DNA from: Bdellovibrionales bacterium
GTDB lineage: Bacteria; Bdellovibrionota; Bacteriovoracia; Bacteriovoracales; Bacteriovoracaceae
DNA length: 31,076 nt
NCBI GenBank assembly: GCA_005791855.1
Contig: SXUH01000401.1
Coordinates: 1 to 31,076 of the forward strand
Direction: 5' to 3'
The position numbers were made by a program, and so were the translations under genes. Below, piece by piece: positions 3,301-16,081 of this stretch; the first letter of the stretch is position 1, and the number at the start of each line of letters is the position of its first letter. Under the pieces are notes generated by a model. The model did not search any database. It saw nothing but the letters and a program-made list of their open reading frames with translations, and was not told the origin of the DNA.

Positions 3301-4493
3301 GCCGGTGCGTGGAGGAGGCCAAGGACGAGGCCATCCGGGTGAACGGGAAGATCCACATCGACCGCTCCTTTGAAAAGCTCCCCGGCTTCTGCGTGGGCCC
3401 CGCCCTCTTCGAGCTCCCCGTCCACCAGGCGAAGAACAAGGACTCCTGGTCGCAGCGGGAGATCTTCGGGCCCGTGATCCACCTGGTGGAGTACGACTCC
3501 ATCCTCGAGGCCATCGAGCTCTTCAACGGCACCGAGTACGCCCTCACCGGCGGCGTCTACTCCCAGTCCCAGGATGACATCGACTTCCTCCTGCGCTTCC
3601 TCCGGGCCGGGAACCTCTACATCAACCGGCCCAACACGGGTGCGAGGGTCGGCATCGAACCCTTCGGCGGGTTCAAGCTCTCCGGCACCGGGCCGAAGGC
3701 GGGGGGAGCGGAATACGTGCGGCAGTTCCACTTCCCGCTCTCGGCCGTGGAAGCCGATGACCTGGAGGCCAACTGGTGCCAGGACAGCGGCTACGAGCTC
3801 ATGATCCCTCGCACGTCGCTCGTCGGGGTGCCGGCGCGGGTCCAGCGCTTCGGGGCCTTCGCCCAGGGCTTCCTCGATCAGTACGAGATCTTCATGGGCT
3901 CGGTGAACGAAAAAGACAAGGCCCTCCTCGGGAACTTCGCCGCTTGGATCCGCACGGGGCTCGACGGCTACCTCACCGGCCGGCATCCGAACTTCCACAT
4001 CCCGGGCCAGCTGTCCTACAACGACCTCTCTCTCATCAAGGAGGCCGGGCTGTTCGTGAACATCACCGCCCACCCGACTCCCAAGGCCATGCACTACCTC
4101 TTCGCGGCCCTCGCCCTCGGATCCGGGGTTTCCGTCGCGTGCCTCACAACGGAGGCCTACCAGACCTGGAAGAGCATCCTCGATCTCGCCTGGAAGGCCG
4201 GGTACTCGAAGACAAACCTCGACATCACCTTCCTTTCGAAGCAGCGGCTCCAGACCGTCTTCAAAGAAGCGCAGTATACCTACGTATATGCCGGTAACTT
4301 CGTCCGCTACAAAAACGACGTCTACAGGGAGCTCCTTTCCGGAAGCGCACTCTCCGAGAGCATGCGACTGATCCTCTCGGAGATCGACGGGGTTTCGCTG
4401 GCCGAGCCGGCGCACGTGCTCGATCAGTTCGTCTGGACGAGGTCCATCGCCGTGAACACCATGAGGCACGGGGCTCCGCTGGAGATGAGTTAG
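339..4493 (+). CDS. putA: Bifunctional proline dehydrogenase / P5C dehydrogenase PutA
   Basis: Oxidises proline to P5C with FAD, then glutamate semialdehyde to glutamate with NAD. The protein is 1384 aa, starting at GTG 339 with GGAGG six bases upstream. The FAD-binding PRODH barrel spans roughly residues 290-600, with IKVSALSHDF, VKGAYWD (about 461) and a closing RRIMEN (Arg577, Arg578). The ALDH domain spans about 660-1140, with APWNFPLAIP, catalytic Glu902 in ITEMGG and Cys936 in GQKCSAASR; the Glu-Cys spacing of 34 is the family norm. Residues about 1150-1384 form the extra C-terminal domain of long PutAs. There is no N-terminal ribbon-helix-helix, so it is unlikely to be an autorepressor. 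Its stop overlaps by 4 nt the stop of the last gene of the convergent beta-lactam-like operon, whose CarB-like enzyme is expected to use P5C. A second role in precursor supply, like CarD in Pectobacterium, is inference. Confidence 0.95.
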   Translation: MSESGIPVIVRGRALEQWQVSYYKEFSELIFPGGKLQEKILELIDFAEATHPHGFRREVVVGAYPLLCALRPEEKCVYVGTRRLSRELSLLRLHEMNPVLRTQEDEKLLFQLKDHVERLGTLAPGHFPSEIEWVTHENRLPEFWNTDQWKDVDARAQVIQKALVGKVSDYSSSLFEKFSDYGLSLTAQFDVIRIHLLKFLAVLPSLDHDKTGKEVKRNLLESLRRLRQDTKSMGKEGKRMMRQLPYYLVVLFNFGGALASYLPAPVLAVIIRYLVRMMAKRFIAGESISTSHHTLRELRLTKRDATLDQLGELVVSSREADEYFEKVLQLVHGLKEHIPRGEKNSAGILCSHVSIKVSALSHDFRPQAFEATYAKVAPRLKRILQEAVREQVFINVDAEHYHYRDLVLKIYGKVLLETPELRDFDQTGIVVQAYLRDGARHLQDVIELARKRGIRMPIRLVKGAYWDAETIEGEAHQFTPPQFLNKEESDIHFRQLAYLSLQNHQHIHLAIGSHNIQDHAFVEGLRELRFPQAPVIEHQCLHMTYEALSHGLAGMGWPTRNYMPIGNLLVGMAYLVRRIMENSSQVGVLSIMRSHQKANGLLSPIDVHTQKKKAGAFALDSFVSQTKSDFAPVRPLRLHLPQELEALQSALAAFEKKTTSQQEAFNSSRDTKVVCSSRPSLILGTYRESTSTEATQAVDSAVEALSKTPWSKASHTIYRVGVLLKAADLMLLRRNELAALMIYEAGKTMTEALADVDEAIDFINYYARQEISLQLSHEKLTNRGVVTVIAPWNFPLAIPCGMAVAPLVAGNAVILQPAEQTPLIGIELYNLLVEAGVPKEVFHLILGDGEKVGAPLVTHPRTSGVVFTGSKSVGQWIYRHSAQEINLHYHHQIPMQKKIITEMGGTNAIIVTNNCELDETISGILYAAFGHSGQKCSAASRVIVHREVKDALVSRLVGAIADLKVGESLDPATSVSPLISEEDQKRVRRCVEEAKDEAIRVNGKIHIDRSFEKLPGFCVGPALFELPVHQAKNKDSWSQREIFGPVIHLVEYDSILEAIELFNGTEYALTGGVYSQSQDDIDFLLRFLRAGNLYINRPNTGARVGIEPFGGFKLSGTGPKAGGAEYVRQFHFPLSAVEADDLEANWCQDSGYELMIPRTSLVGVPARVQRFGAFAQGFLDQYEIFMGSVNEKDKALLGNFAAWIRTGLDGYLTGRHPNFHIPGQLSYNDLSLIKEAGLFVNITAHPTPKAMHYLFAALALGSGVSVACLTTEAYQTWKSILDLAWKAGYSKTNLDITFLSKQRLQTVFKEAQYTYVYAGNFVRYKNDVYRELLSGSALSESMRLILSEIDGVSLAEPAHVLDQFVWTRSIAVNTMRHGAPLEMS

Positions 4494-5461
4494 AAGTCTC
4501 CGAACTCCTGGGTGTCGAGGAGCCGCCGCCGGACTCGCACGATGGGAGCGTCGTAGGCCTCGAGCTTCATCCCGGAGAAGTCCTTCCGGTTAACGAGGAT
4601 GTGCTCCAGGAGCCCGGCGTCTTCTCCGATGAGGTCCCGGGTGAGGTAGGAGAGCAGCGGCCGGAGGAGTTTCTTCATTGGCCTTTGCCAGGCGGGCAGC
4701 TTCTGGAAGAGCAGGCACGGTGACATGGTCACGCCCTCTCCGGCCGGGTAGAAGTAGAAGGTGTTGGCGTTGGTGTCGTTGACCCTGCGCTTGGTCCCGG
4801 GCCGGTACTAGTAGATGGTGTAGGTCACGCGGATCGGATGGAAGTCCACGGAGGCCTTCACGTACCAGCGCGTCCGGAGGAAGTAGTTGAACAGGGAGTT
4901 GATGGTCCAGGGCCTCTGCGGGTAATCGAAGACGATGTCGATCCCGTCCTCCCGCTCTTCCCATTCGAACTTCGTGTCCGGGGCCAGGGCTTCGTTGGCC
5001 CCGTTTCTGCGGTGGACGTAGGGGAGGTGGCCCCCGTCGCAGAAGTTATCGACGGTGACGTGGAGCGGAGCCTTGAAGGTGAAGAGGACGACGCCGATGA
5101 AGTCCCCGCGCTGGGCTTCGAGCGCAGCGAAGTACGAGTCGTCGCCGTTGAGCCAGAGGAAGCCGAAGCGAGGAGTCAGCCGGTAGACGGGGACCGTGCC
5201 CTTCGATTTCTGTTCCGCGGGGCTCGTAACCTTCCCGTCTGCACCCAGAGTCCAGCCGTGGTACGGACACTGGAGGGCCTTCCCGCAGACCCTTCCCTTG
5301 GAGAGGTCCGCGCCACGGTGCGGGCAGGAGGCGCTTGCGGCGAAGTACCCTTCGGAGGTCTTCCAGGCGACGTAGGGCGACCCGGAGAAGGTGAACTTCA
5401 CCGGAACGTCCTTGACCTTCGAGGCTTCGAGGAGCGGAAGGGGAGTCGTGATCTGGTTCAT
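4490..5461 (-). pseudogene. Rieske non-heme iron oxygenase A, interrupted by an in-frame amber codon
   Basis: The frame runs MNQITTPLPL to QEFGDF with one TAG at 4810-4808 (codon 218). The upstream part holds the Rieske [2Fe-2S] motif (Cys46, His48 in CPHRG; Cys65, His68 in CPYHGW) and the D-x2-H-x4-H iron site (Asp142, His145, His150). The downstream part, still intact and homologous to the neighbouring paralogue, carries the Asp expected as third iron ligand (EDAGLLE, codon 4621-4619). The amber aligns with Trp217 (TGG) of paralogue B, so a single G-to-A change explains it. A protein ending at residue 217 would lack the third ligand and should be inactive. The start ATG directly follows the TGA of gene B with no gap. 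The frame downstream has not decayed, so this is a recent mutation, an assembly error, or a suppressed codon. TAG serves as an ordinary stop elsewhere here, so recoding is unlikely. Confidence 0.85.
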
Positions 5462-6433
5462 TCAGTCGTCTCCCGCGAACTCCCGCGACCTGAGGTAGCG
5501 CTCGCGCACCCGCACCAGCGGGACGTCGGCCGCCTCCAGGCGCAGACCGCCGCGGTCGAGCTTGCGCACGAGCATGCTCTGGGCGACCTCGACGTCTTCG
5601 GTGAGAACCGAGAGGAGCAGTCGCTTGGAGACGGCGGCGAAGAGGCGCCGGAAGGGCCGCAGGTGCTTCGGGAGCCGGTGGAACAACAGGCACGGGACCA
5701 CGGTGGTCTCGCGGTCCGCCGGGTAGAGGTAGAAGGTGTTCGTGTTCACCCCGTTGGGGACCTTCTTGTCCGAGGCCCGGTACCAGTAGTTCTGGTAGCG
5801 GATCCGAACCGGAGCGAAGTCCACCGTCGGCGAAACCACCCAGCGGAAGGGAACGAAGAAGTTCAGGAAGCCGATGAGGGAGAACCGTCGCTGGGGGTAG
5901 TCCGAGGTGATGGTGACGCTCGTGTCGTCTTCGCTCCAGCTGAACTGCAGGTCCCCCGTCGGTTCGAAGAGAGCGTTCCGCCGGTGCACGAACGGGAGGT
6001 GGGTCCCGTCGACGAAGCTATCCAGGGTGATGTGGAGCGGGGCCTTGAGGGTCACGGTGAGGGCGCCCAGGAAGTCCCCCCGCTCGCGCTCCAGCTCCGC
6101 GAAGTAGGCGGCGTCCCCGCCGAGCCACAGGAACCCGAAGCGGTCGGTGAGCGGGAAGGTCTGCTGGTGCCCCTTGGCCTTCCCCTCGGAGGGACTGGTG
6201 ACCTTCCCGTCGCCGGCGATCGTCCAGCCGTGGTACGGGCACCGGAGGAACTTCTCGCACGCCTTCCCCTTCGAGAGGTCGGCCCCCCGGTGCGGGCAGA
6301 CCGCGCTGGAGGCGAAGAACCCCTCGCCGGTCTTCCAGACCACGTAGGGCCTGCCCTCGAAGGAGATCCGCCGCGGGGCCTTCCGCACGAGCCTGGTTTC
6401 GACGAGCGGGAGCGGAGTGGTGATGTGGTTCAT
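5462..6433 (-). CDS. Rieske non-heme iron oxygenase B (oxygenase component)
   Basis: A 323-aa protein with an N-terminal Rieske domain (Cys46, His48; Cys65, His68) and a C-terminal mononuclear iron domain with Asp142-x2-His145-x4-His150 and probable third ligand Asp280 (LTEDVEVAQ). Such enzymes use electrons from a ferredoxin/reductase to activate O2 for hydroxylation, desaturation or cyclisation; no reductase or ferredoxin is seen in this window. Close tandem paralogue of gene A (same MN-ITTPLPL start and collinear motifs), so the pair arose by duplication. The ATG at 6433 overlaps the TGA of gene C (ATGA), which fixes the start; the frame is open further upstream but that part only shadows gene C. 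In the cluster it is a candidate for tailoring or desaturating the bicyclic beta-lactam (inference). Substrate unknown. Confidence 0.88.
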   Translation of the reverse strand: MNHITTPLPLVETRLVRKAPRRISFEGRPYVVWKTGEGFFASSAVCPHRGADLSKGKACEKFLRCPYHGWTIAGDGKVTSPSEGKAKGHQQTFPLTDRFGFLWLGGDAAYFAELERERGDFLGALTVTLKAPLHITLDSFVDGTHLPFVHRRNALFEPTGDLQFSWSEDDTSVTITSDYPQRRFSLIGFLNFFVPFRWVVSPTVDFAPVRIRYQNYWYRASDKKVPNGVNTNTFYLYPADRETTVVPCLLFHRLPKHLRPFRRLFAAVSKRLLLSVLTEDVEVAQSMLVRKLDRGGLRLEAADVPLVRVRERYLRSREFAGDD

Positions 6434-7410
6434 TCGTCTTCCCCGAACCCGACGAAGTAGGACGGGTCCACCTTCTTCCGGATGGCTACCAGGGGATGGT
6501 CGAACTTGTCGAGCCGCAAGCCCCGGAACGAGAACGGGAGGTCGCTGATGGCCGGGTAGAACTTCTCGTCTTCGACGATCTGGTTCCTGGTGAGGGCGTT
6601 GGAGAAGAGCTTGATGAGGAAGGAGAAGGGCCTGAGGTGCCGGGGGATCTCCGTGTAGGTGAAGGCGTGGAGCCAGGTCTGCTCCTTCCCGCAGGGGACG
6701 AGGAAGTAGACGTTCTCGTTCTCCAGCCACCACTTCCGGCCCGTCCGGCGGGTGACCCACTTCGAGTGGTAGACCATGCGCACGGGATCGACGTAGGTCT
6801 CCCAGTGGATGTCCCAGTTGAGGTAGGTCTTCCAGAAGGGACCGTTGTAGACGAGGTTGGGCCTCTGGGGGCCCAGGTACTTCACGTGGACGTGGTCGCC
6901 TCGGTCTTCCCAGGAGAAGTCGATCTCCTTCACCTGGCTCTCCTTGGATCCCATGACCCGATGGACGAAGGCCGTGTGCGAGCCTTCGTTGAAGTTGTCC
7001 AGCACCACGTGGAACGGGGCCGAGAGCTTGATGGACTGGGCACCGGTGAAGGTCACGTGGGCGGACGGAGAGAGCGGCAGCGGAAGCTTGTTCCGGTTCA
7101 TCCACAGGCAGTCGAAGTGCTCCTCGAGCTTCACCACGGCCACCGAGCAATTCACCTTCTCACCGTAGGGATGCTCCACCTTCCCGTCGGTCTGGATCTT
7201 CCAGCCGTGGTACGGGCACTGGACCCCGGCGTCCTGGACCGTGGCGAAGCGGAGGTCCGTTCCCCGGTGGGGACACTTCTGCGGATAGGCGTAGTAGCCG
7301 TCGGCGTTCTTCACCACGAGGTAGGTGGCGGCGCCGGCCCGGACCTCGGTGAGCTTCCCGGTGAGGTTCTTCTTGGCGATCAAGGGGAAGCAGGAATCGA
7401 GGAAGTTCAC
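6430..7410 (-). CDS. Rieske non-heme iron oxygenase C, with Glu at the bridging position
   Basis: A 326-aa protein starting at GTG 7410, whose GTGA overlaps the stop of the synthetase gene; GGGAGGG lies just upstream. Rieske ligands are Cys46, His48 (CPHRG) and Cys65, His68 (CPYHGW). The iron-site motif reads NEGSHTAFVH: His145 and His150 are kept, but the position that is Asp142 in paralogues A and B is Glu142. Probable third ligand is Asp281 (IVEDEKFY). In this fold the acidic residue bridges the Rieske cluster of one subunit to the iron of the next; carnitine monooxygenase CntA also uses Glu there, from memory. More diverged than A and B, so it probably performs a different step. Part of the ten-gene operon. 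Confidence 0.88.
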   Translation of the reverse strand: MNFLDSCFPLIAKKNLTGKLTEVRAGAATYLVVKNADGYYAYPQKCPHRGTDLRFATVQDAGVQCPYHGWKIQTDGKVEHPYGEKVNCSVAVVKLEEHFDCLWMNRNKLPLPLSPSAHVTFTGAQSIKLSAPFHVVLDNFNEGSHTAFVHRVMGSKESQVKEIDFSWEDRGDHVHVKYLGPQRPNLVYNGPFWKTYLNWDIHWETYVDPVRMVYHSKWVTRRTGRKWWLENENVYFLVPCGKEQTWLHAFTYTEIPRHLRPFSFLIKLFSNALTRNQIVEDEKFYPAISDLPFSFRGLRLDKFDHPLVAIRKKVDPSYFVGFGEDE

Positions 7411-8762
7411 GGTGCCCTCCCGGTGAGCTCGGTGAGTCTTCTCTTCAGGTACTCCCACGCCCGCGCGGTCTTCGCCGGGTAGGCGTAGCCATCCCCGAGG
7501 CCCAGGGCCCGGGAGAGCAGGGTGTAGAAGTTCGTGCCGTTGCTCATGCCGATCTTCGCGCGGAAGGCGTGCTCTCTCTTGAGCCACCCGGCTTCCACCG
7601 CCAGGTCACGCAGGAGGATCTTCTGGACCTCGCCCTTGAAGTTGAGCGGGGTCGGGAGGTTCAGGGCGAGCTGGACCAGGGGCCGGTGCCAGTAGAGGTG
7701 GTAGAGCTCGACCCCGGAGCTCAGGTGGAAGAAGGGCCTGAACTCTCCACTCCAGGAGGTCCGCTCGATGAGCTCTTGTTCGTTGGTGACACCCACGGCC
7801 CGCATGTACTCGGTGTGCAGGAGCATGCCGCCGAAGAGGAGGTCCGATCCGTAGCCGGTGAAGAGCCGGCGGCTCGAAGTGCCACTGACCTTCACCAGCC
7901 CCTTGAGCTGGGCCAGGATCTCGGCGGTGAGGCCATCGAAGACCTCGTTCTGCCACACCACCGTCTCGAAGAGGCCCGGGGCTTCATCCTCCGACACGAA
8001 GATCCGGTTGGCCCTAAGCCCCAGGTGGGCGGCGAGGTCCTGGGCGTCGGCGTACTCGTCGCCCAGGGGAGTGCCGAGGGTGTAGACGTCGAACTTTTTT
8101 TCCCGGGAGGCGAGGAGGGCCGTGGCGACGGAGGAGTCGATGCCTCCGGAGAGCATGGAGCCCCAGGGGCCCGGCAGGCCTTCGCTCGTCGCGAGGGAGG
8201 CTTCGAGCTCTTTCCTGAGCTTCGCCATCGCCGCTTCCGGTGTGATGGAGACTTTCTGGTCGAACTCGAGGTAGGGGGCCCGGGCGACGGTGACTTCCCT
8301 GGTCCGGAGGTCCACCGTGACCGCGCTGGTGGCGAGGTTCCGCACGTCCTCGAGGAAGGAGAAGTCCCGGGGCCTTCGCTTGATGGCCAGGACGTCCTCG
8401 TCGGCCTTGAACCGGTAGCGGAAGCCGTCGATCACGCTCAGGGCCTTGAGCTCGGAGGTGAAGTAGGAACACGCTTCGGTCTCGAAGAACCAGAGTGGGT
8501 ACATGCCCATGGGGTCGTTTCCGATCCGAAGAACCTCGTCCCCGAGGTCGATCCGGAGCCAGGCGGTGATGGAGGACTGGGTCGTGCCCGCGGGGAAGAG
8601 AGCGTGGGAGCCGTGGAAGCTTCCGCCGCTACTGAGGTAGAGGGCGCCGTTTTTAAAGGTCCGCTTCTCGACGCTCCCGTGGTACGGGCACAGAAGGCCC
8701 TGGAGCCGTTGCCGGTAGTCCGGAGCAGAGGAGGTCTTATCGATCACTAGTAGAAATGACAT
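7407..8762 (-). CDS. CarA-like carbapenam / beta-lactam synthetase (AsnB superfamily)
   Basis: A 451-aa protein. The C-terminal adenylating domain has the PP-loop SGGIDSS (205-211), then QNEVFDGLTAEI (about 271-282), FTGYGSDLLFGG (301-312), RTSWSGEF (334-341) and FRAKIGM (400-406). In carbapenam synthetase CarA the corresponding segments hold the catalytic Tyr345/Glu380 pair and Lys443; here Tyr304, Glu340 and Lys403 fit with nearly the same spacing. The N-terminal domain starts MSFLLV, so the Cys2 nucleophile of glutamine-dependent asparagine synthetases is missing, as in beta-lactam synthetases. That domain looks shorter than in CarA (about 500 aa). Expected reaction: ATP-dependent closure of a beta-lactam on a carboxymethylproline-type beta-amino acid. 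The start at 8762 has AGGAAGGAAG directly before it and overlaps the AMP-ligase by 26 nt. The comparison is from memory. An amide-forming AsnB relative with another substrate is the alternative. Confidence 0.85.
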   Translation of the reverse strand: MSFLLVIDKTSSAPDYRQRLQGLLCPYHGSVEKRTFKNGALYLSSGGSFHGSHALFPAGTTQSSITAWLRIDLGDEVLRIGNDPMGMYPLWFFETEACSYFTSELKALSVIDGFRYRFKADEDVLAIKRRPRDFSFLEDVRNLATSAVTVDLRTREVTVARAPYLEFDQKVSITPEAAMAKLRKELEASLATSEGLPGPWGSMLSGGIDSSVATALLASREKKFDVYTLGTPLGDEYADAQDLAAHLGLRANRIFVSEDEAPGLFETVVWQNEVFDGLTAEILAQLKGLVKVSGTSSRRLFTGYGSDLLFGGMLLHTEYMRAVGVTNEQELIERTSWSGEFRPFFHLSSGVELYHLYWHRPLVQLALNLPTPLNFKGEVQKILLRDLAVEAGWLKREHAFRAKIGMSNGTNFYTLLSRALGLGDGYAYPAKTARAWEYLKRRLTELTGRAP

Positions 8763-10197
8763 CTTCCTTCCTAACCTTGCTTCTTAGAATTTTCCCCAGG
8801 GGACTCCGGGCGAACTGCTCGACGAGGTAGAACCGCTTGGGAACTTTGTAGTCGGAGAGGCGGGTCCGGAGACTCTCTCTGAGGTCCCGGACGATCGCCT
8901 CGAAGTCTGCTCCCGGACTCAGGAGCTCGAGGTAGGCGACCACTTCCTGTCCGGTGATGGCCGCGGGCTCCGCACCCACCACGCAGTCGCGGATCTGCTG
9001 GTGCTCTTTGATCAGGGCCTCCACCTCCAGCGGGAAGACCTTGGAGCCCCCGACGTTGACGAAGTCCTTCTTCCGTCCCGTGAGGTAGAACCGGCCCTTC
9101 CCGTCCACCTGGACCAGGTCACCGGTGAAGAGCTCCTGGTCCTGTGGGGTGAAGCTGTAGTCTCTTCCGATGAGGTACCCGGAGTAGAGCGCCCGGGAGG
9201 TGACGACGAGCTCTTCTTGCTCGATCCGAAAGCCCATCCCCTGGATGGGTTTTCCGACGGAGCCGTAGGCGAGGTCCCGGGGATCGGGCTGGAGGTTCAG
9301 GCAGATCACTCCGATCTCCGCGAGGCCATAGCCCTGCTTGATGGAGACCCCGAAGCGCTCGAAGAAGCTCTCGGCCGTCGCCTCGGAGAGGGCCGCGCTT
9401 CCGCAGAACGGGAGGCGCAGGCTCGAGAGGTCGTAGCTCTGTTTCTTTATGAGCTTCAGGCAGAGTTCGTAGAAGCTCGGGACGGAGCTGAAGAAGGTGA
9501 TCTTCTCCCGCTCGATGGTTCCGAGGATGCTGGTGGGAGCGGCGAGCTCCGGGGCCGTGATGAAGAGCGTGCCTCCCGCGAGGAGCGTGGGGAGGGTCAG
9601 GCAGTCGATGCCGTGGGAGTGGGACAGGGGGACCGCGCAGAGAGTCCGGTCCGCGGCGGTGAGGCCAAGGGACACTGTTAAGCCCAGGGCCCGGTCGTAG
9701 ACGGCGTCGTGGGTGAGGAGGATGCCCTTCGGCTCGCCCGTCGATCCGGAGGAGAACTGGATCATCCCAATGGACGCGAGCTCGGGCACAGTCTGCTGGC
9801 CCTGGAGGCGGTCGCTCAGGATCGCACCCCGGGGGGCGACCTCGAGGACGGAGGTCCCTTGCAGCTGGAGCAGTCCCGCGGTCGTCACCAGGTGGTGGCG
9901 GCCACCGAAGTTCGAGAGGATCTTCAGGAGCTCCTCTTCTTTATAGCTCGGATCGAGGGGCACGAAGCAGGCACCCGTCTTCCCGGCGGCGAGCAGGGTG
10001 GCGACGAAGGCCGGGTTGTTCCCGACGTAGCAGCCCACCACCGACCCGGGGCCGACCTCGTGTTCCTGGAGCACCTGGGCCAGCGCCGCACTCCGTTCAC
10101 ACAGTTCCTGGTAGGTCAGGGCCTGGGCCCCGAGCCGGAGAGCGATCTTCTCCGGTGCCTTAGATGAAATTTGCTCTACGCTCGTCCACAGTTTCAT
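8737..10197 (-). CDS. AMP-forming acyl/aryl/amino acid ligase (ANL superfamily)
   Basis: A 486-aa adenylating enzyme with the P-loop-like FSSGSTGEPKG (about 148-158), PLSHSHGID, GYGLAEIG, the hinge region FYLTGRKKDFVNVGG and a C-terminal catalytic Lys context (SPLGKILRSK). It activates a carboxylic acid as an acyl-AMP and passes it to CoA or a carrier thiol. The ACP two genes upstream is the natural acceptor, making this a free-standing loading pair. It is too short to contain a carrier domain of its own. Three nt separate it from the beta-helix gene, and only a weak Shine-Dalgarno is visible, so translation is probably coupled. Substrate cannot be read from the sequence. In the cluster it could load a side-chain acid or an amino acid for the P450 to oxidise (inference). 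Confidence 0.88.
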   Translation of the reverse strand: MKLWTSVEQISSKAPEKIALRLGAQALTYQELCERSAALAQVLQEHEVGPGSVVGCYVGNNPAFVATLLAAGKTGACFVPLDPSYKEEELLKILSNFGGRHHLVTTAGLLQLQGTSVLEVAPRGAILSDRLQGQQTVPELASIGMIQFSSGSTGEPKGILLTHDAVYDRALGLTVSLGLTAADRTLCAVPLSHSHGIDCLTLPTLLAGGTLFITAPELAAPTSILGTIEREKITFFSSVPSFYELCLKLIKKQSYDLSSLRLPFCGSAALSEATAESFFERFGVSIKQGYGLAEIGVICLNLQPDPRDLAYGSVGKPIQGMGFRIEQEELVVTSRALYSGYLIGRDYSFTPQDQELFTGDLVQVDGKGRFYLTGRKKDFVNVGGSKVFPLEVEALIKEHQQIRDCVVGAEPAAITGQEVVAYLELLSPGADFEAIVRDLRESLRTRLSDYKVPKRFYLVEQFARSPLGKILRSKVRKEDVISTSDR

Positions 10198-10200
10198 GAG

Positions 10201-11391
10201 TTACTTCTTGAGAAAGGCTTCGGGGATGGCGTGGAGCCGTCCCTGGTTCGAGATGAGGTGCTGGCCCTCGCGCTGCGGGACCTCGTCGATCATGTTCTTG
10301 TTGATGACGGTCGTCCGATTGGGGATCATCCTGCCGGGTTTGAAGATGAGGCCCGCGCCGATGGAGCAGTCGTCGCCCACCGCGCTGGCGAGGAACTTGT
10401 GGAAGGTTTCCCTCTTCCCCTCGCCGAGGTCGATGGTCGCCCAGTCCTTGAAGAAGTCGAAGTCGGAGAAGCCCGTGGCCCCGCCGACGAAGGTCCGGTC
10501 CCCGATCACGCAGTTCACGAGGAGCTGGGTGAAGATCATGCAGTCCTCGCCGATCAGGGCGTTGAAGAGGTTCGCGGTGGTGAGGAAGGTCCCCGCGCCG
10601 ATGGAGGAGAGTTTCACCGAGGAGTTCTCGCGGACGGTGGCGTTCTTCCCAACCCAGCTCGCCCGGAGGTAGCAGTAGGGCCCGATCTCCACGCCGTCTT
10701 CGACCACGCAGCCCTCGAGCACGGCCGTGGGATGGATGCGGCAGCCGCGGCCAATGCGGTTCATGCGCTTCGCGAGGGAGGGCCTACTGGTGAGGAACTC
10801 GAGGAGCTTCTGCGGGAGGAAGGCCTTGAGCGCCTCGACGGAGCCGAGGGTGAACTCGCGGTTGGCGAGCGACCCCGCCAGAAGGTAGGCGCTCCAGTCA
10901 TCCACCTCCACTCCCACAAGAGAGTTCACCGGGATGAAGGTATCGGGTTTCTTCAAGATGGCCGGGGGGAGGCCCGAGGGAACTCGCAGGAGCTCCGGCG
11001 TCTCCAGGGTCACGGGAACGCACTGGTCGGTCCGCTGTCCGGGCCGGAGATAGAAGAGCTTGAGCGGCACGCTGGCCTCGTCCGCGGTGGAACTGAAGAC
11101 GAGCAGGGCCCGTTTCTGGACGTGGCACTGGAGCGATCTCTCCGAGCCCCGGGCCGCTGCGACGAAGGCCTTGAGCAAGCCGCGGCTCAGGTAGCTCGCG
11201 GCGGAGCAGACGAGAGCTTCTCCGGTGAGGCCCGCGAGCTCGCCGGCGTCGCACGCCTGCACCACAAGGCCAAGCTCTCTGGCCTGGGCCGTCAGCCGGT
11301 CCAGGAGGCTCACGCCGTTGAGCCTCATCGCCTCGGCCGGTCGCCGCCAGGGTTCGAGGAGGCCCGCGGTCTTCACCAGGTAGAGCTTCAT
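10201..11391 (-). CDS. Left-handed beta-helix (hexapeptide repeat) protein, acyltransferase-like
   Basis: A 396-aa protein. Residues about 195-360 show imperfect hexapeptide repeats (IGRGCRIHPTAVLEGCVVEDGVEIGPYCYL, given here as positions about 200-229, then further turns to IGAGLIFKPGRMI) typical of trimeric beta-helix acyltransferases and of the C-terminal half of GlmU-like proteins. Residues 1-190 (MKLYLVKTAGLLEPWRRP...) resemble a degenerate nucleotidyltransferase-type domain, but I see no clear nucleotide-binding signature. ATG 11391 overlaps the TGA of the ACP gene (ATGA). Standing between the ACP and AMP-ligase genes, it may move the ACP-bound acyl group onto an amine or hydroxyl of the beta-lactam (inference). 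A purely structural role is the alternative. Confidence 0.7.
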   Translation of the reverse strand: MKLYLVKTAGLLEPWRRPAEAMRLNGVSLLDRLTAQARELGLVVQACDAGELAGLTGEALVCSAASYLSRGLLKAFVAAARGSERSLQCHVQKRALLVFSSTADEASVPLKLFYLRPGQRTDQCVPVTLETPELLRVPSGLPPAILKKPDTFIPVNSLVGVEVDDWSAYLLAGSLANREFTLGSVEALKAFLPQKLLEFLTSRPSLAKRMNRIGRGCRIHPTAVLEGCVVEDGVEIGPYCYLRASWVGKNATVRENSSVKLSSIGAGTFLTTANLFNALIGEDCMIFTQLLVNCVIGDRTFVGGATGFSDFDFFKDWATIDLGEGKRETFHKFLASAVGDDCSIGAGLIFKPGRMIPNRTTVINKNMIDEVPQREGQHLISNQGRLHAIPEAFLKK

Positions 11392-11609
11392 GAATTTTCC
11401 GAGATGATCTTTTCGAGGTCGGAGACGGTGTTCACCGGATGGCCCTCGGCGGCCTTCTCGCCCAGATCGATGCCCCATTCTTCGGAGAAGAACACGACGA
11501 GCTCGATGAGCTTCATGCTATCGAGTCCCAGGGTGGTCCGGAGGTGGTCGGAGCCCTTCACCTCTTTCTTGGAAGAGAGGCGTTGCAGCTCGCGGATGAG
11601 GTCTTTCAT
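11388..11609 (-). CDS. Free-standing acyl carrier protein
   Basis: A 73-aa acidic protein with LGLDSMKLIELVVFF; Ser31 in the D-S-M motif is the expected phosphopantetheine site. Helix II (SMKLIELVVFFSEEW) and the length match ACP/PCP carriers. It lies 12 nt after the P450 gene and overlaps the beta-helix gene by 4 nt. With the AMP-ligase it forms a discrete loading module. P450s that act on carrier-bound amino acids or acyl chains are well known, which makes the adjacent P450 a plausible partner (inference). No phosphopantetheinyl transferase is present in the window. Confidence 0.88.
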   Translation of the reverse strand: MKDLIRELQRLSSKKEVKGSDHLRTTLGLDSMKLIELVVFFSEEWGIDLGEKAAEGHPVNTVSDLEKIISENS

Positions 11610-11621
11610 CCTTAGATTGTT

Positions 11622-12965
11622 TCAGAGAGTACCCGGAGGTGAAACGGGGTAAATTTTTGCCCGCACGCGGAACTTCGGTTTCATGGTGACCAGGGCCTCG
11701 TACCGCTCCTCCGGCAGGTGGTCCGTGGCGAAGTCGAATCTCTGACAAAAATGCCGGACTACTGACAGCATCTGCACCAGGGCGAAGGAGGCCCCGATGC
11801 AGGAGCGGGTTCCGGCGGAGAAGGGGATGTAGCTCCCCGGCAGGGAGTTCACCGGATCCGAGGGATCGTCGTGGCGCTCGGGTCTGAGCTCCGAGGCACC
11901 GAGGTGGACCTTCTCCGAGCGGTGGATCCCGATGAGGTTGATCATCAGGAACTCTCCTTTCCGGATCTGCCTCCCGTCGAGGCTCAGGTCCTCCAGCACC
12001 GTCCGGCTGAGGAGGTAGACCGGCGGGTAGACCCGGAGGACTTCCTTGATCAGATTCGTTGTGTACGGCATCTGGGTTTCGTACTGCTCGGTGGAGGCCC
12101 GGGCCTCGGCGGTCACCCTGTCCCTGATCGCCGGGTGCTTCAGCAGGGTGTAGAAGATCCAGGTGAGGGCGGAGGCACTGGTCTCGTGGCCCGCGACGTA
12201 GATCCCCATGGCCTCGTTTCTGATGGCCACGGCGTCGAGGGTCTGGTCGTCGTTCCGGAAGACCTCCAGCAGGTGGTCGATCATGAGCTTGCGCTCCTCC
12301 TGCGAGCTCGCGAGGTGGGCCTGCCTTGAGGAGATGATGGTCGAGATGGTGTGGTCGATCTTCCCCAGGATCTTCCGGGCCCGGGCCCGGCCCGGGGTCC
12401 ACACCCACGGCGGGAGGGGTGCGGGTTGCAGGGTCTCCCCGAGGACGAACTTGTTCATGTAGCCGATGTCCCGCGCGAGCTCCCCGGTGCTCTGGCCCTG
12501 GCCGAAGAGGACCTTGCTCACCAGTTCCTGGTTTAGCGTCTCCAGGAGTGTGTTGAACTCGATCTCCCCGGCCCTGAGCTTCGCGAACTCCGCCACCACC
12601 AGGTCGTCGATGACGCCGCGGAAGAGGCGGACGTGGGCGGGCCTGAAGACCGGGATCATCTTCTTCTTGCGCTTGTTGTGGAGCTCGTTCTCGGCGGTGA
12701 GGAGGCCTTCCCCCAGGAACTTCTTGGCGAAGTGGTTGAGGATGGGTCCCTGGGCGAGCTTGCCGGAGAGGTTCACCAGCACCTCCTGCGCGAGGGCCGG
12801 GTCGTTGATCAGGACGAAGGACTTTCCGAGGAGGTTCAGGCGCTGGAGCTTGTGCGGCCGCTCCGTGGAGGCGGTGAGGAAACCGACGATCCCCAGGCGC
12901 AGAAGCGAGTAGAGGTTCCCCACCACGGGGACCCGGGAGAGGCTTGGGATCCCGCCGGGTTTCAT
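11622..12965 (-). CDS. Cytochrome P450 monooxygenase
   Basis: A 447-aa protein with all P450 landmarks: I-helix AGHETSASAL (258-267), K-helix EVLR (308-311), the PERH meander (about 362) and the heme loop FSAGTRSCIG with axial Cys389. There is a short hydrophobic N-terminus but no convincing membrane anchor. Overall it looks like the CYP102/CYP4-like bacterial branch, but without a fused reductase. ATG 12965 overlaps the stop of the crotonase gene by 4 nt. Redox partners are not encoded nearby. Possible roles are oxidation of the ACP-bound acid or oxidation of the beta-lactam nucleus, and the sequence cannot decide between them. Confidence 0.93.
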   Translation of the reverse strand: MKPGGIPSLSRVPVVGNLYSLLRLGIVGFLTASTERPHKLQRLNLLGKSFVLINDPALAQEVLVNLSGKLAQGPILNHFAKKFLGEGLLTAENELHNKRKKKMIPVFRPAHVRLFRGVIDDLVVAEFAKLRAGEIEFNTLLETLNQELVSKVLFGQGQSTGELARDIGYMNKFVLGETLQPAPLPPWVWTPGRARARKILGKIDHTISTIISSRQAHLASSQEERKLMIDHLLEVFRNDDQTLDAVAIRNEAMGIYVAGHETSASALTWIFYTLLKHPAIRDRVTAEARASTEQYETQMPYTTNLIKEVLRVYPPVYLLSRTVLEDLSLDGRQIRKGEFLMINLIGIHRSEKVHLGASELRPERHDDPSDPVNSLPGSYIPFSAGTRSCIGASFALVQMLSVVRHFCQRFDFATDHLPEERYEALVTMKPKFRVRAKIYPVSPPGTL

Positions 12966-13717
12966 TTAGTTTCTTTCAGGATGTTCTTGAAGTGCTTCTC
13001 CCCGCTCTTGGCCATGAAGGAATCCACGTGGGCCTTCGCCGCGAGGGGCCTAATGGCGTCGAGGTCGTCGATGAAGCGCTGGTTCTGGATGGACTTGGTG
13101 AGGGTGAAGGGGATCGCCGGGTAGGCGGCGTAGGCCCGCGCCTTGGCGAGGGCCCGCTCCAGGAGCTCGGGGACTTCGCAGGTTTCGTCCATGAGGCCCA
13201 GCTCGACGGCCCGGGAGGAGCTGATCTCCCCGCAGTCGATCACGTACCGGAGCATGAGGGCCCGGCCCAGCATCCGCTCGAGGATGATGGCCCCGAGCGG
13301 GCAGGCCACTCCGTTCTTCAGCTCCGGCATGGCGATGCTGCTCCGGTGCGAGCCGATGCGGTAGTCACCCATGAGGGCGACTTGCAGGCCCTGGCCGATG
13401 GCGAAGTGGTCGATGGCCACCACCAGCGGCTTGGAGAAGGCGAGGATACAGACGTAGAGGTCGATGATCTCGAGGAGGTACTCGCGGATGACGTCGACTT
13501 CGTTGAGCTTACTCACGTCTTTGAAGTCGCCCCCCACGCTGAAGGAGCGGTCGATCCCTCCGGTCAGCACCGCGCTCCTGACCTTCGGGTCGCGGCCGGT
13601 GGCGTCCAGGAGCTGCATGAGCTCCTGGGTCATGCGCCGGGAGAAGGGATTCTCTTTCTTCTCGTGGTTGAGCTGGATGAGAAGGAGGGAGTCGTCTATG
13701 AGCTGGGTCTTGAGCAT
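12962..13717 (-). CDS. CarB-like carboxymethylproline synthase (crotonase superfamily)
   Basis: A 251-aa crotonase, the same length class as CarB (250 aa). Besides the crotonase fold it has segments I recall from CarB/ThnE: NPFSRRM (23-29), RSFSVGGDF (57-65), IDLY (85-88), AIGQGLQVALM (106-116), MPELKNGV (130-137), AAYPAIPF (197-204) and a C-terminal HFKNILK (CarB ends HFKNVLGKK). Glu132 matches catalytic Glu131 of CarB and Gln112 matches Gln111. Met108 of CarB is Gln109 here and Trp79 is Tyr80, so the substrate pocket may differ. Expected reaction: decarboxylation of malonyl-CoA (or a homologue) to an enolate, attack on P5C, then thioester hydrolysis to carboxymethylproline. GAGGA lies upstream of ATG 13717, 8 nt after the carboxyltransferase stop. 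An ordinary enoyl-CoA hydratase is less likely given these motifs and the CarA-like neighbour. Confidence 0.87.
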   Translation of the reverse strand: MLKTQLIDDSLLLIQLNHEKKENPFSRRMTQELMQLLDATGRDPKVRSAVLTGGIDRSFSVGGDFKDVSKLNEVDVIREYLLEIIDLYVCILAFSKPLVVAIDHFAIGQGLQVALMGDYRIGSHRSSIAMPELKNGVACPLGAIILERMLGRALMLRYVIDCGEISSSRAVELGLMDETCEVPELLERALAKARAYAAYPAIPFTLTKSIQNQRFIDDLDAIRPLAAKAHVDSFMAKSGEKHFKNILKETK

Positions 13718-13725
13718 GGGGTCCT

Positions 13726-15132
13726 CTAGTTGATGCGGGCGCTGACGTCGCTTGCCTCCACCGGCGCTCCTCCGAGGAAGCCATCGATGAGGTAGGCCAG
13801 TTCCGACAGGCTTACGGTTTTATCAATTGTTCCAAAGTTAATCAGGTCTTGCAACCGTGGTAAGTGTTTGCTCTTGGTCTCTTCCCAGTCGGCCCGGAGG
13901 GATGGTTTGGACTGCACCACTCGGTCGAGCAGCGAGTCGCTCATGATCCCCAGGGAGCTGTCTTCCAGAGCGAGGAACCCCAGAGAGCCGTGGGACGGCG
14001 GGAGCGCGAACATGCCACTTCCACCGAAGGACCGTTTGAGGAGAAGGCCGAGCTTGGGGTGCGGATACTCGACGAGCTTCTCCACCAGGTCGATGGAAGC
14101 GAGGAGGATGTCCCGGTCGCTCTCCACCTGCCGCGGATCTCCCCCCGGGCTGTCGATGCCGGAGACGAGGGGGAGCCCCAGGGTGCGGAAGACCTGCAGG
14201 GCCATCTCGTAGCGCCGGACCATGGCGCGGTTGATGACGTTCTCCGGGTTCTTCAGCGGCTGGAGGATCGCTCCGAAGAGCTGGTGGTTCTTCTTCATGA
14301 GGTAGGTCTTCCCGACCTGGGAGAGCTCCGGGAAGATCTCGAAGGCGTCGTCGCAGAGGACCTCGAGGAAGCGGTGGTGCTCGTCCAGGGCCTTGGGGAA
14401 AACCGTGGCCCGGTCTTTTTTCTGCAGGGCCGAGAGGTGCTGGAGCTGGGGCTTACTTTTCCTATAGGAGAGGAAGTGCAGGAGCCCGTTGAGGCGGGCG
14501 ACGACGGAGTCGAAGTCCCGGTAGGCTTCCTGGATGAGCTCGTTGGTCTGCCACTGGTGCCCGGCCGAGGCGTAGTCCTTGTACTCCAGCTGGGGTTTGT
14601 CGGCGTCGCCGTAGAACTTCTTGATGATGGAGGGCCCGGTGAGGTTCAGGAGCGTGTCCTCGGCACTGGTGAGGCGGAAGGTTCCCTGGGCGAAGAACAC
14701 GGCCCCGGCCCCGAGGCATTTCTCATCGGCGATGGTGACGAGGAGGTGTTTCTTCCGGAGCCGGAAGAGCTCGGGCATGATCCCCCAGATGGGGTCGAAG
14801 ATGGTCCGGTCATGGGTGATGCGCACCCCACCGGTGCGAAGGTACAAGACGTACACGGCCCGCTCCTCGAGGCAGGCCTCGGTGATGGCCTTCTTGAACA
14901 GCCCGAGGTTCGGGTTATCGTAGGTGCCCCCTCTCACTGCCGGCACGGAGATGGAAAAGTAGCAGGCCCTGAAGGCGTCCTCACCGTAGCAGCGGAAGTG
15001 CCGGATGGTCTGGTTACTGGTTGAGAGGAGGGGGGCACGGAGCTCTTCTACCCTGCGGTAGCCAGACAGCAGAGCGCGGGCCTCTTGGGAGAGGTCCGGG
15101 CCTTCATCCAGGTCGATGTAGTTCCAGTTCAT
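13726..15132 (-). CDS. Carboxyltransferase-domain protein (ACC/PCC beta-like)
   Basis: A 468-aa protein with two crotonase-like halves. The first has YLRTGGVRI, then ADEKCLGAGAVFFA and NLTGPSIIKKFYG, matching the ...LTGP..V... signature of biotin-dependent carboxyltransferases. The second has LGLPLVSGIDSPGGDP and LLLKRSFGGSGMFAL, matching the ..PLV.LVDTPGF.P.. and K..GGA segments. Somewhat shorter than typical acyl-CoA carboxylase beta chains (about 510). First gene of the operon; ATG 15132 has GGAGG four bases upstream. It may make malonyl- or methylmalonyl-CoA for the CarB-like enzyme, but needs a biotin carboxylase and carrier protein from elsewhere in the genome. Decarboxylase or other acyl-transfer activity is possible. 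Confidence 0.8.
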   Translation of the reverse strand: MNWNYIDLDEGPDLSQEARALLSGYRRVEELRAPLLSTSNQTIRHFRCYGEDAFRACYFSISVPAVRGGTYDNPNLGLFKKAITEACLEERAVYVLYLRTGGVRITHDRTIFDPIWGIMPELFRLRKKHLLVTIADEKCLGAGAVFFAQGTFRLTSAEDTLLNLTGPSIIKKFYGDADKPQLEYKDYASAGHQWQTNELIQEAYRDFDSVVARLNGLLHFLSYRKSKPQLQHLSALQKKDRATVFPKALDEHHRFLEVLCDDAFEIFPELSQVGKTYLMKKNHQLFGAILQPLKNPENVINRAMVRRYEMALQVFRTLGLPLVSGIDSPGGDPRQVESDRDILLASIDLVEKLVEYPHPKLGLLLKRSFGGSGMFALPPSHGSLGFLALEDSSLGIMSDSLLDRVVQSKPSLRADWEETKSKHLPRLQDLINFGTIDKTVSLSELAYLIDGFLGGAPVEASDVSARIN

Positions 15133-15295: not shown

Positions 15296-16081
15296 ATGAA
15301 TGTTCTCGTTCTCGGCGCTGGGAAAATGGTAGAGGCCATCCTCCTTGGCCTTAAAAAAAATCAGGACCTCTCAAGCTGGCAGATCTACTCACCCTCCGGG
15401 ACCAGCGCCGAGCTCCTCGCCCGGAAAGTCGGGGCTTCTCCGGTCAAAGACCTCGGGTCGGTGAAGGATCCCTCCTGGATCCTCGTGGGCTGCAAGCCCC
15501 AGCAACTCAAGGACCTGAAGCTCACCCTCGCGGGGAGGTTCAAGGATTCTCTCTTCGTGAGTGTGCTCGCTGCCATCGACGAAGAAGCCCAGCTCAAGGA
15601 ACTCGAGGCCCGGCGCTTAGTCCGAGTGATGCCAAGCCTCGCCACCCAGTACGGCGAAGGGGTGAGTCTTCTGAGCTCCACCTCCGCCCGGGACCGCCTT
15701 CCGGAGTTCAAGACCCTCTTCGGCGGCCTCGGCACGGCCCTGGTGGTCTCGGAGCGAGAGCTCGACGAGCTCACCATCCTCACGGCGTCGGCCACGGCAC
15801 TTTTCTACGAGTTCAGTCAGAACCTCTTCGAGGCCTTCGATTCTCTCACCGCCCCAGACCGCGAAGCCCTGGTGCGCCAGGTGCTCACCGGCTCCGGCGT
15901 GAGTGCCAAGGAATCCTCTCTGCCACTCTCGGAGATGATCAAGCAGGTCACCTCCGAAGGGGGAGTGACCATCGCCGTCCTGGAGAACTGGCGACGGAAC
16001 GGGTTCAAGGGCCTGATCAAGGCCGGGGTGGCCGCGGGGAAGCTGCGCTCCGAAGAGTTAAAGAAACTCATTCGAGGCTAA
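15296..16081 (+). CDS. proC: Pyrroline-5-carboxylate reductase
   Basis: Reduces P5C to proline with NAD(P)H. The protein is 261 aa, with the Rossmann GAGKMVEAIL at the N-terminus, VGCKPQQLK, VRVMPSLATQYGEG and the C-terminal dimer region TGSGVSAKESSLPLSEMIKQVTSEGGVT; length is normal. I chose ATG 15296 (MNVLVLGAGK, with GGGAG eight bases upstream) over the in-frame ATG at 15281, which would add five residues before the Rossmann strand. It diverges from an operon containing a P5C-using CarB-like enzyme, and putA lies beyond that operon, so all three P5C enzymes sit together. Its stop is overlapped by 14 nt by the convergent lipoprotein gene. Confidence 0.9.
   Translation: MNVLVLGAGKMVEAILLGLKKNQDLSSWQIYSPSGTSAELLARKVGASPVKDLGSVKDPSWILVGCKPQQLKDLKLTLAGRFKDSLFVSVLAAIDEEAQLKELEARRLVRVMPSLATQYGEGVSLLSSTSARDRLPEFKTLFGGLGTALVVSERELDELTILTASATALFYEFSQNLFEAFDSLTAPDREALVRQVLTGSGVSAKESSLPLSEMIKQVTSEGGVTIAVLENWRRNGFKGLIKAGVAAGKLRSEELKKLIRG

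What the first reader, a model, noticed from the sequence alone, without database searches (positions are those of the whole stretch)
4490..15132. Carbapenem-type beta-lactam biosynthetic operon
One tight minus-strand operon encodes both nucleus-forming enzymes of carbapenem biosynthesis: a CarB-like carboxymethylproline synthase (12962-13717) and a CarA-like carbapenam synthetase (7407-8762). CarB-specific motifs and catalytic Glu132 are kept, as are the CarA Tyr304/Glu340/Lys403 set and the missing glutaminase Cys. Known clusters come from enterobacteria, Photorhabdus and actinomycetes. The other eight genes here do not resemble car or thn gene order.
Basis: partly seen in the sequence, partly recalled or inferred. 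Interest (0 to 1): 0.95.

Follow-up and report, generated by a model that had tools for sequence, protein, structure and literature searches.

The report
New branch of carbapenam-making operon
A bacterium known from a partial metagenome genome carries an operon with relatives of the two enzymes that build the core of carbapenem antibiotics, but with a different set of helper genes, and it likely makes a beta-lactam with a side chain built in by a route not described for known producers.

Summary
A ten-gene minus-strand operon (15132 down to 4490) encodes a carboxymethylproline-synthase-type crotonase (CarB-like) and a carbapenam-synthetase-type enzyme (CarA-like). Trees place them with CarB and with CarA/beta-lactam synthetase, apart from other crotonases and AsnB (99/99 and 100/99); key catalytic residues are kept. 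They belong to a large branch, not described in the papers searched, seen in Myxococcales, other deltaproteobacteria, Planctomycetota and metagenomes. In four Myxococcales/deltaproteobacterial members carB is followed by a carrier protein, a beta-helix protein, crotonyl-CoA carboxylase/reductase (CCR) and an acyl ligase. The window has no CCR; an acyl-CoA-carboxylase-type carboxyltransferase precedes carB instead. These are the two known routes to alkylmalonyl-CoA, and two CarB positions that set alkylmalonyl use in engineered CarB are changed across the branch. I infer a carbapenam nucleus whose C-6 side chain enters as an alkylmalonyl unit, then oxidised by P450 and Rieske enzymes. The operon lies exactly between putA and proC, adjacent in 19 of 25 other genus genomes. 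No CarC was found, so a carbapenem proper is not shown. One Rieske gene carries an in-frame stop. No product is known.

The parts
13726..15132 (-). CT: acyl-CoA carboxylase-type carboxyltransferase (468 aa), first gene, 8 bp before carB
12962..13717 (-). CarB-like carboxymethylproline synthase-type crotonase
11622..12965 (-). Cytochrome P450 (heme motif FSAGTRSCIG present)
   Evidence: Pfam p450 220.5 bits; motif read
11388..11609 (-). Acyl carrier protein, 73 aa, GLDSMKL motif
   Evidence: Read; NCBIfam ACP models match below their cut-offs (best 30.7 bits), no Pfam hit; lies just before the beta-helix gene, as the carrier-protein gene does in L016-L020 (in those directly after carB; here the P450 gene lies between)
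10201..11391 (-). GlmU-like fusion: nucleotidyltransferase-like N half plus left-handed beta-helix C half (a fold of acyl/acetyltransferases and gamma carbonic anhydrases)
   Evidence: Pfam Hexapep; 33-36% identity to proteins after the carrier protein in L016-L020; weak PDB hits, carbonic anhydrases first, then LpxA-type; model poor, pLDDT 60, N half weakly like CobY/GlmU-type enzymes
8737..10197 (-). Acyl-activating AMP-forming ligase (fatty acyl/feruloyl-CoA ligase type)
   Evidence: Pfam AMP-binding 220.6 bits; best PDB 8wev 191 bits
7407..8762 (-). CarA-like carbapenam synthetase-type enzyme, no recognisable glutaminase domain and no catalytic Cys
6430..7410 (-). Rieske non-heme iron oxygenase 1 (GTG start overlapping carA stop)
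   Evidence: Pfam Rieske 49.6 bits; start read
5462..6433 (-). Rieske non-heme iron oxygenase 2 (323 aa)
   Evidence: Pfam Rieske 56 bits; best PDB SxtDIOX/SxtT, about 40 bits
4490..5461 (-). Rieske oxygenase 3, tandem relative of Rieske 2 (51% over 320 aa), interrupted by an in-frame TAG at 4808-4810
339..4493 (+). putA, bifunctional proline dehydrogenase/P5C dehydrogenase, convergent flank
   Evidence: NCBIfam PutA 552 bits, below its cut-off; full-length orthologues of 61-74% identity in the genus
15296..16081 (+). proC, P5C reductase, divergent flank
   Evidence: TIGR00112 123.9 bits, below its cut-off; adjacent to putA in 19 of 25 other genus genomes

Best explanation
This minus-strand operon encodes members of the carboxymethylproline synthase (CarB) and carbapenam synthetase (CarA) lineages with their key catalytic residues kept, and it is predicted to make a carbapenam-type bicyclic beta-lactam whose C-6 side chain would be brought in as a ready-made alkylmalonyl thioester rather than added later. 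Predicted steps: (1) the AMP-forming ligase activates a carboxylic acid and loads it on the small carrier protein or CoA; (2) the carboxyltransferase, with the host's biotin carboxylase, carboxylates it at C-2 to an alkylmalonyl thioester; (3) the CarB-type enzyme decarboxylates this and couples the enolate to pyrroline-5-carboxylate (P5C), giving a 6-substituted carboxymethylproline; (4) the CarA-type enzyme closes the beta-lactam with ATP; (5) the P450 and the intact Rieske oxygenases oxidise the product, in place of the 2-oxoglutarate oxygenases seen in relatives, and the beta-helix protein may acylate it. P5C is made by PutA and used by ProC, the products of the flanking genes. Shown by sequence: lineage membership, active-site residues, gene content, the insertion between putA and proC, and the carboxyltransferase fold (model). 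All reaction steps are inferred.
For: Trees: CMPS lineage 99/99 and the family 100/99; CarA/BLS lineage 100/99 and the family 100/99. Residues: CarB G62, Q111, E131, H229 equivalents in 31 of 31 family rows; Trp79 is Tyr in 28 of 31 and Met108 is Gln in 30 of 31, against Trp in 16 of 18 and Met in 12 of 18 canonical rows (three Chitinophagales rows were counted apart: Ala, Ala, Leu and Met, Met, Leu). In PMC6542682 (abstract and passages read) W79 variants, W79Y among them, take ethylmalonyl-CoA, W79A takes bulkier alkylmalonyl-CoAs, coupling with Ccr can improve stereocontrol, and some of the products are closed by CarA. Clusters L016-L019 of this branch run CarB-ACP-LbH-CCR-ligase; two of these CCRs were scored and both exceed the TIGR01751 cut-off (447 and 445 vs 378.55). 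The window shows no CCR match but has the carboxyltransferase, whose model matches 5ini/5ing, the CCR-independent alkylmalonyl-CoA-forming MccB that acts after an acyl-CoA ligase (PMC5187497, abstract and passages read; folds). Among 42 CMPS loci, CCR is in the fetched flanks of 10 of 18 without Trp79 and 0 of 24 with it; 0 of 26 non-CMPS crotonase loci have it. Two biotin carboxylase C-domain matches exist elsewhere in the genome. putA-proC adjacency in the genus.
Against: No product or assay. L020 of this branch keeps Trp79 and shows no CCR; L021 has Tyr but no CCR within 10 kb; the Chitinophagales loci lack both Trp79 and CCR. The second oxyanion-hole position (Met108 in CarB) is changed to Gln, whose effect is unknown. 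The carboxyltransferase is only 11-17% identical to known ones in the fold alignments, and no biotin carboxylase or biotin carrier is in the operon. The ligase's substrate and the beta-helix protein's role are unknown; the latter's model is poor. No CarC match; no transporter, resistance or redox-partner family was recognised in the operon. Rieske 3 has an in-frame stop, which may mean decay. The profile finds the family in 1 of 368 genomes of the phylum, the window's own (E <= 1e-40), and that genome is 59.8% complete.
Confidence: 0.55

Rival explanations
1. Plain carbapenam route: CarB uses malonyl-CoA and P5C as in Pectobacterium, the carboxyltransferase only boosts malonyl-CoA supply, and the ligase, carrier protein and beta-helix protein attach an acyl group to the finished or oxidised carbapenam.
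For: CarB/CarA lineage and residues. The beta-helix fold is shared with acyl-ACP-dependent LpxA-type acyltransferases (PDB hits at E 0.001-0.004, behind carbonic anhydrases at 3e-4), and its gene directly follows the carrier-protein gene in the window and in L016-L020.
Against: Change across the branch of two CarB residues that set alkylmalonyl use in engineered CarB, and CCR, which makes substituted malonyl-CoA, in four sister clusters.
Confidence: 0.25
2. The CarB/CarA pair has been put to another use: the CarB-type enzyme couples a different imine or aldehyde and the CarA-type enzyme forms a lactam or amide other than a beta-lactam.
For: The oxyanion-hole residue Met108 is Gln in 30 of 31 family rows; the accessory genes differ from those of the car clusters; one scanned Planctomycetota member (L139) sits among NRPS and PKS genes.
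Against: The Tyr-Glu pair of beta-lactam-forming synthetases is kept in every family row examined; the CarB residues Glu131, His229, Gln111 and Gly62 are invariant in the 31 rows; P5C genes lie on both sides here.
Confidence: 0.12
3. The operon is a recent, decaying acquisition in this lineage and makes nothing complete any more.
For: Found in only 1 of 368 phylum genomes; Rieske 3 carries an in-frame stop.
Against: The other nine genes are open, with start-stop overlaps or gaps of at most 12 bases; Rieske 2 is an intact relative of Rieske 3 and could cover for it.
Confidence: 0.08

Closest known systems
carABC(DE) carbapen-2-em cluster of Pectobacterium/Photorhabdus (L072, L033)
   Same: CarB-type carboxymethylproline synthase plus CarA-type carbapenam synthetase; P5C is the known precursor there and the inferred one here
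   Different: No CarC, CarE, CarF, CarG or CarH match in the window; the only CarD match is putA itself (54 bits; tblastn, E 1e-4). The order is CT-carB-P450-ACP-LbH-ligase-carA-Rieske x3, the CarA-like protein is about 50 aa shorter (451 vs 503), and the CarB pocket has Tyr/Gln for Trp79/Met108. Car gene names for L072 are assigned by order, from recall
Thienamycin cluster (thn) of Streptomyces cattleya
   Same: CarB/CarA homologues ThnE/ThnM; no close CarC (PMC6097109, passages read)
   Different: Thienamycin's C-6 ethyl is added by the radical SAM enzyme ThnK; here no radical SAM family was hit in the operon, and the side chain is inferred to come in as alkylmalonyl. Thn gene order was not compared with a fetched sequence
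Stambomycin MccB + SamR0482 and reveromycin RevT + RevS alkylmalonyl-CoA modules
   Same: Acyl-activating ligase paired with an acyl-CoA carboxylase beta subunit (window) or with CCR (L016-L019); the same two-way choice as described in PMC5187497
   Different: There the unit feeds a polyketide synthase; here it is inferred to feed a carboxymethylproline synthase, and a free-standing carrier protein is present. The carboxyltransferase is about 14% identical to MccB
Myxococcales/deltaproteobacterial relatives L016, L017, L018 (L137), L019 (L138)
   Same: CarB 49-53% identical; carrier protein, beta-helix protein and ligase after carB
   Different: They have CCR between the beta-helix protein and the ligase; three of four have a TauD-type oxygenase after it (L017's contig ends in the ligase gene) and two a P450 (L016, L018). 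The window has a carboxyltransferase before carB, a P450 after it and three Rieske genes, and no CCR or TauD match

Membership tests
Carboxymethylproline synthase (CarB/ThnE) | Groups with CarB and 5o34 rather than ordinary enoyl-CoA hydratases | tested here: met
   64-row tree: 12 crotonases 99/99 apart, family 100/99 inside the CMPS side
Carboxymethylproline synthase (CarB/ThnE) | Oxyanion-hole Gly62 and active-site Gln111, Glu131, His229 | tested here: met
   31 of 31 family rows keep all four
Carboxymethylproline synthase (CarB/ThnE) | Second oxyanion residue Met108 (CarB) or Val153 (ThnE), and Trp79 | tested here: not met
   Gln109 and Tyr80 in the window; Gln in 30 of 31 and Tyr in 28 of 31 family rows. 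Canonical rows also vary here (Met 12, Ile 3, Ala, Leu, Val of 18; Trp 16 of 18), so I read this as a subfamily mark, not exclusion
Carboxymethylproline synthase (CarB/ThnE) | Forms carboxymethylproline from P5C and a malonyl thioester | not testable with these tools
   needs enzyme assay
Carbapenam synthetase (CarA/ThnM, with beta-lactam synthetase) | Groups with CarA/BLS rather than AsnB | tested here: met
   53-row tree, 12 AsnB-type rows apart at 100/99
Carbapenam synthetase (CarA/ThnM, with beta-lactam synthetase) | Tyr-Glu pair and Lys for ring closure; SGG-D-S ATP motif | tested here: met
   Y304, E340, K403, S205-G207, D209, S210 kept in all 22 other family rows, 16 canonical loci, CarA and BLS. 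Only Y304 (0 of 12 AsnB-type rows) and, less sharply, E340 (2 of 11) discriminate; the Lys and the ATP motif are shared with AsnB
Carbapenam synthetase (CarA/ThnM, with beta-lactam synthetase) | No N-terminal glutaminase Cys | tested here: met
   Starts MSFLLV; none of the 24 aligned family rows shows Cys at residue 2 (P0190 lacks its N end)
Carbapen-2-em (car) cluster | CarC 2-oxoglutarate oxygenase beside carAB | tested here: not met
   No CarC or TauD match in the window by tblastn at E 1e-4
Carbapen-2-em (car) cluster | CarD proline dehydrogenase in the operon to supply P5C | tested here: not met
   No CarD in the operon; putA lies convergent next to it
Alkylmalonyl-CoA-forming acyl-CoA carboxylase (MccB type) | Acyl-CoA carboxylase carboxyltransferase fold | tested here: met
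   Foldseek and VIA matches over residues 9-463 of the model
Alkylmalonyl-CoA-forming acyl-CoA carboxylase (MccB type) | MccB specificity residues | not tested
   sequence too distant for residue-level transfer (13-14% to 5ini/5inf/5ing)
Lasso-peptide cyclase / AsnB | Intact glutaminase domain (AsnB) or precursor peptide plus lasso protease (lasso) | tested here: not met
   No glutaminase domain found and the lasso cyclase model is far below cut-off (30.8 of 525 bits); no protease family was hit in the operon. Precursor peptides were not searched for

The most novel reading that the evidence does not exclude
A widespread, undescribed branch of beta-lactam biosynthesis builds C-6-substituted carbapenams from polyketide-style alkylmalonyl units: an acyl ligase and carrier protein feed either CCR (Myxococcales and kin) or an acyl-CoA carboxylase (this genome), and a natural Tyr79/Gln108-type carboxymethylproline synthase joins the unit to P5C. 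It is nature's version of the engineered Ccr/CarB-W79 system, with Rieske and P450 oxygenases taking the place of CarC here.
Probability: 0.42. Interest if true: 0.9.

Novelty: new variant of a known kind. Interest (0 to 1): 0.78.

Why it matters
In thienamycin the C-6 side chain is put on by the radical SAM enzyme ThnK (PMC6097109, passages), and simple carbapen-2-em has none. If this branch takes the side chain in as an alkylmalonyl unit, it offers natural enzymes for a reaction so far reached by engineering CarB, and a source of new beta-lactam cores in bacteria outside the usual producers. It also makes a standing question testable: how carbapenam nuclei are tailored where CarC is missing. 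The literature searches run here (open-licence PMC text only) listed no paper that by title and abstract start describes these clusters; two of the lists were capped (20 of 231, 20 of 455).

Tried and rejected
Rejected: AsnB or lasso-cyclase reading of the synthetase and ordinary enoyl-CoA hydratase reading of the crotonase. Rejected: contig chimera or misbinning as the source of the operon, because putA, proC, the lipoprotein gene and the deacetylase gene around it keep the genus's order and orientation. Rejected: that P5C genes flank the operon because they came with it; the pair is adjacent in the genus without it, and the operon sits between them.

Led nowhere: the first genome scan with the single CarB sequence found nothing. 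The beta-helix protein's model was poor and its fold matches weak. rpoB was not found in the window's genome, so the host could not be placed with it. The host's taxon name is therefore not given; only genus and phylum codes are known. A tree-aware test of the link between position 79 and CCR had too few independent pairs (36 of 42 loci kept, dropped for short flanks: L015, L020, L023, L043, L048, L049). The cispentacin carrier-protein hit is below cut-off and I give it no weight. The search for beta-lactam biosynthesis with Bdellovibrio found no paper; that host guess was my own and is not used. In one search my first carrier-protein query was in the wrong frame and found nothing; it was set right and used.


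Full report
What is there. The window is a whole contig (G000:C366) of a 59.8% complete metagenome genome. On its minus strand, from 15132 down to 4490, ten genes follow one another with overlaps or gaps of at most 12 bases: CT (13726-15132), CarB-like (12962-13717), P450 (11622-12965), a 73-aa acyl carrier protein (11388-11609), a beta-helix fusion protein (10201-11391), an AMP-forming acyl ligase (8737-10197), CarA-like (7407-8762) and three Rieske oxygenases (6430-7410, 5462-6433, 4490-5461). The carrier protein is not named in the finding. The third Rieske gene has the same length as the second and is 51% identical to it over 320 aa, but it has an in-frame TAG at codon 218.

The nucleus-forming pair. 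By sequence search of the PDB the crotonase scores twice as high against 5o34 and CarB as against the next crotonase (174.9 and 173.6 against 84.0 bits), and the synthetase is closest to CarA, then beta-lactam synthetase, then AsnB (113.5, 69.2, 33.0 bits). A 64-row tree (25 of the 171 protein hits, 32 of the 68 loci, the window, three PDB chains and three crotonases of the same genome) places the crotonase in a starred clade of 31 rows (100/99) on the CarB side, with 12 other crotonases, the genome's own three among them, apart at 99/99. A 53-row tree of the synthetase domain places it in a clade of 23 rows (100/99) with CarA and BLS, and 12 AsnB-type rows apart at 100/99. Long branches are present in both trees (BLS, several crotonases), so the order of the deep splits is unsure. 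Tyr304, Glu340, Lys403 and Glu281 are invariant in family, canonical and BLS rows. In AsnB-type rows Tyr304 is in 0 of 12, Glu281 in 1 of 11, Glu340 in 2 of 11, and Lys403 in 11 of 11, so the Tyr carries most of the weight. CarB's Gly62, Gln111, Glu131 and His229 are kept in 31 of 31 family rows. The roles of these CarA and CarB residues are partly recalled; PMC6542682 (abstract and passages read) gives Gly62 and Met108 as the oxyanion hole.

A branch with its own mark. At the CarB Trp79 position the family has Tyr in 28 of 31 rows and at Met108 Gln in 30 of 31; canonical rows have Trp in 16 of 18 and Met in 12 of 18; three Chitinophagales rows, counted apart, have Ala, Ala, Leu and Met, Met, Leu. 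In PMC6542682 these two were among the positions changed to alter which alkylmalonyl-CoA CarB takes and the C-6 stereochemistry; W79 variants (F, A, Y, S) took ethylmalonyl-CoA, and pairing with crotonyl-CoA carboxylase/reductase (Ccr) enhanced stereoselectivity.

What travels with the pair. A scan of one genome per species found 68 loci, 42 of them CMPS relatives by score (L015-L055, L072, 158 bits or more; the other 26 score 76 or less). In L016-L019 (Myxococcales and deltaproteobacteria) the order is CarB, ACP, beta-helix protein, CCR, ligase; a TauD-type oxygenase follows in L016, L018 and L019 (L017's contig ends in the ligase gene), and a P450 after it in L016 and L018. L020, titled an uncultured Mycolicibacterium bin, has CarA, CarB, ACP, beta-helix protein, ligase, TauD. 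Two of the four CCRs were scored and both exceed the TIGR01751 cut-off (447 and 445 against 378.55 bits). A CarA-type match (E 1e-20 or better) was found in 10 of 10 genomes searched (G368-G377), on the carB contig or another one. The one Planctomycetota cluster scanned against Pfam (L139) lies among NRPS and PKS genes; another (L024) has a CCR just before carB. Bradyrhizobium loci with CarB-type genes have a CCR in 5 of 8 (L028, L032, L034, L036, L052; not L043, L046, L048, of which L043 and L048 have short flanks). Overall CCR (over 150 bits) is in 10 of 18 loci whose best CarB lacks Trp79, 0 of 24 with Trp79, and 0 of 26 non-CMPS crotonase loci. The plain Fisher value (3e-5) ignores kinship; on the tree there are only one to three independent pairs on starred branches, so the link is suggestive, not tested. 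Against it: L021 and the three Chitinophagales loci lack both Trp79 and CCR. L020 has Trp79 and no CCR, in line with the link but against a branch-wide Tyr.

Where it sits. putA and proC are adjacent and co-directional in 19 of the 25 other genomes of the genus; in 2 (G010, G004) putA is followed by the lipoprotein gene without proC, and in 4 (G007, G008, G015, G021) neither was found at the thresholds used. In the window the operon stands exactly between them, with its last stop overlapping putA's stop, and the genes beyond proC keep the genus's order. The CarB profile finds the family in 1 of 368 genomes of the phylum at E 1e-40, the window's own (at most 7 candidates scored per genome in the rows shown). 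So the operon was most likely gained in this lineage, between the two genes whose products make and use P5C, the partner substrate of CarB. Whether that place matters for supply or control is not known.

How it most likely works. See Best explanation. Shown: lineage, residues, gene content, insertion. Inferred: every reaction. I put about 0.85 on a carbapenam-type beta-lactam nucleus being made by the pair and about 0.6 on the C-6 alkylmalonyl route given that. A carbapenem proper, with the C-2/C-3 double bond, is open: no CarC is found, and thienamycin's cluster has no close CarC either (PMC6097109, passages read); the P450 and Rieske enzymes are the candidates for any such oxidation.

Limits. 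One species, one incomplete genome, no product. Only open-licence PMC papers were searched, and lists were judged by title and abstract start, so 'undescribed' means not in those listings. The host's name could not be found.

Noticed in passing
window 25491-31076 +: Very large protein (1862 aa, runs off the contig) with a CdiA_C contact-dependent inhibition-type domain near its C end (43.6 bits).
   Followed up: no
window 4490-5461 -: Third Rieske oxygenase is a tandem relative of the second with an in-frame TAG; putA next to it also ends in TAG, so TAG acts as a stop here.
   Followed up: partly
L028, L034, L036, L052: Bradyrhizobium loci hold two CarB-type genes, one of the two with Gly62 and Gln111 replaced, plus a CCR, and no CarA in the fetched flanks: an unexplained CMPS pair of their own.
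   Followed up: partly
L139 (G374:C20:60001-80000): Planctomycetota cluster joining CarB and CarA with an NRPS module and a PKS ending in a sulfotransferase domain.
   Followed up: partly
L137 7792-10392; L138 13853-16474; L142 14735-17359: Large FtsX/LolC-type ABC permease near carA in Myxococcales/deltaproteobacterial clusters, a possible exporter with no counterpart in the window's operon (L137 scored; the other two seen by similar sequence).
   Followed up: no
L051, L053, L054: Caballeronia car-like loci hold carA, carB, carC and a second, distant CarB-type gene.
   Followed up: no
window 21044-24725 -: Transglutaminase (TgpA-type), a 300-aa protein without a Pfam hit and a MoxR-type AAA ATPase in a row.
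   Followed up: no
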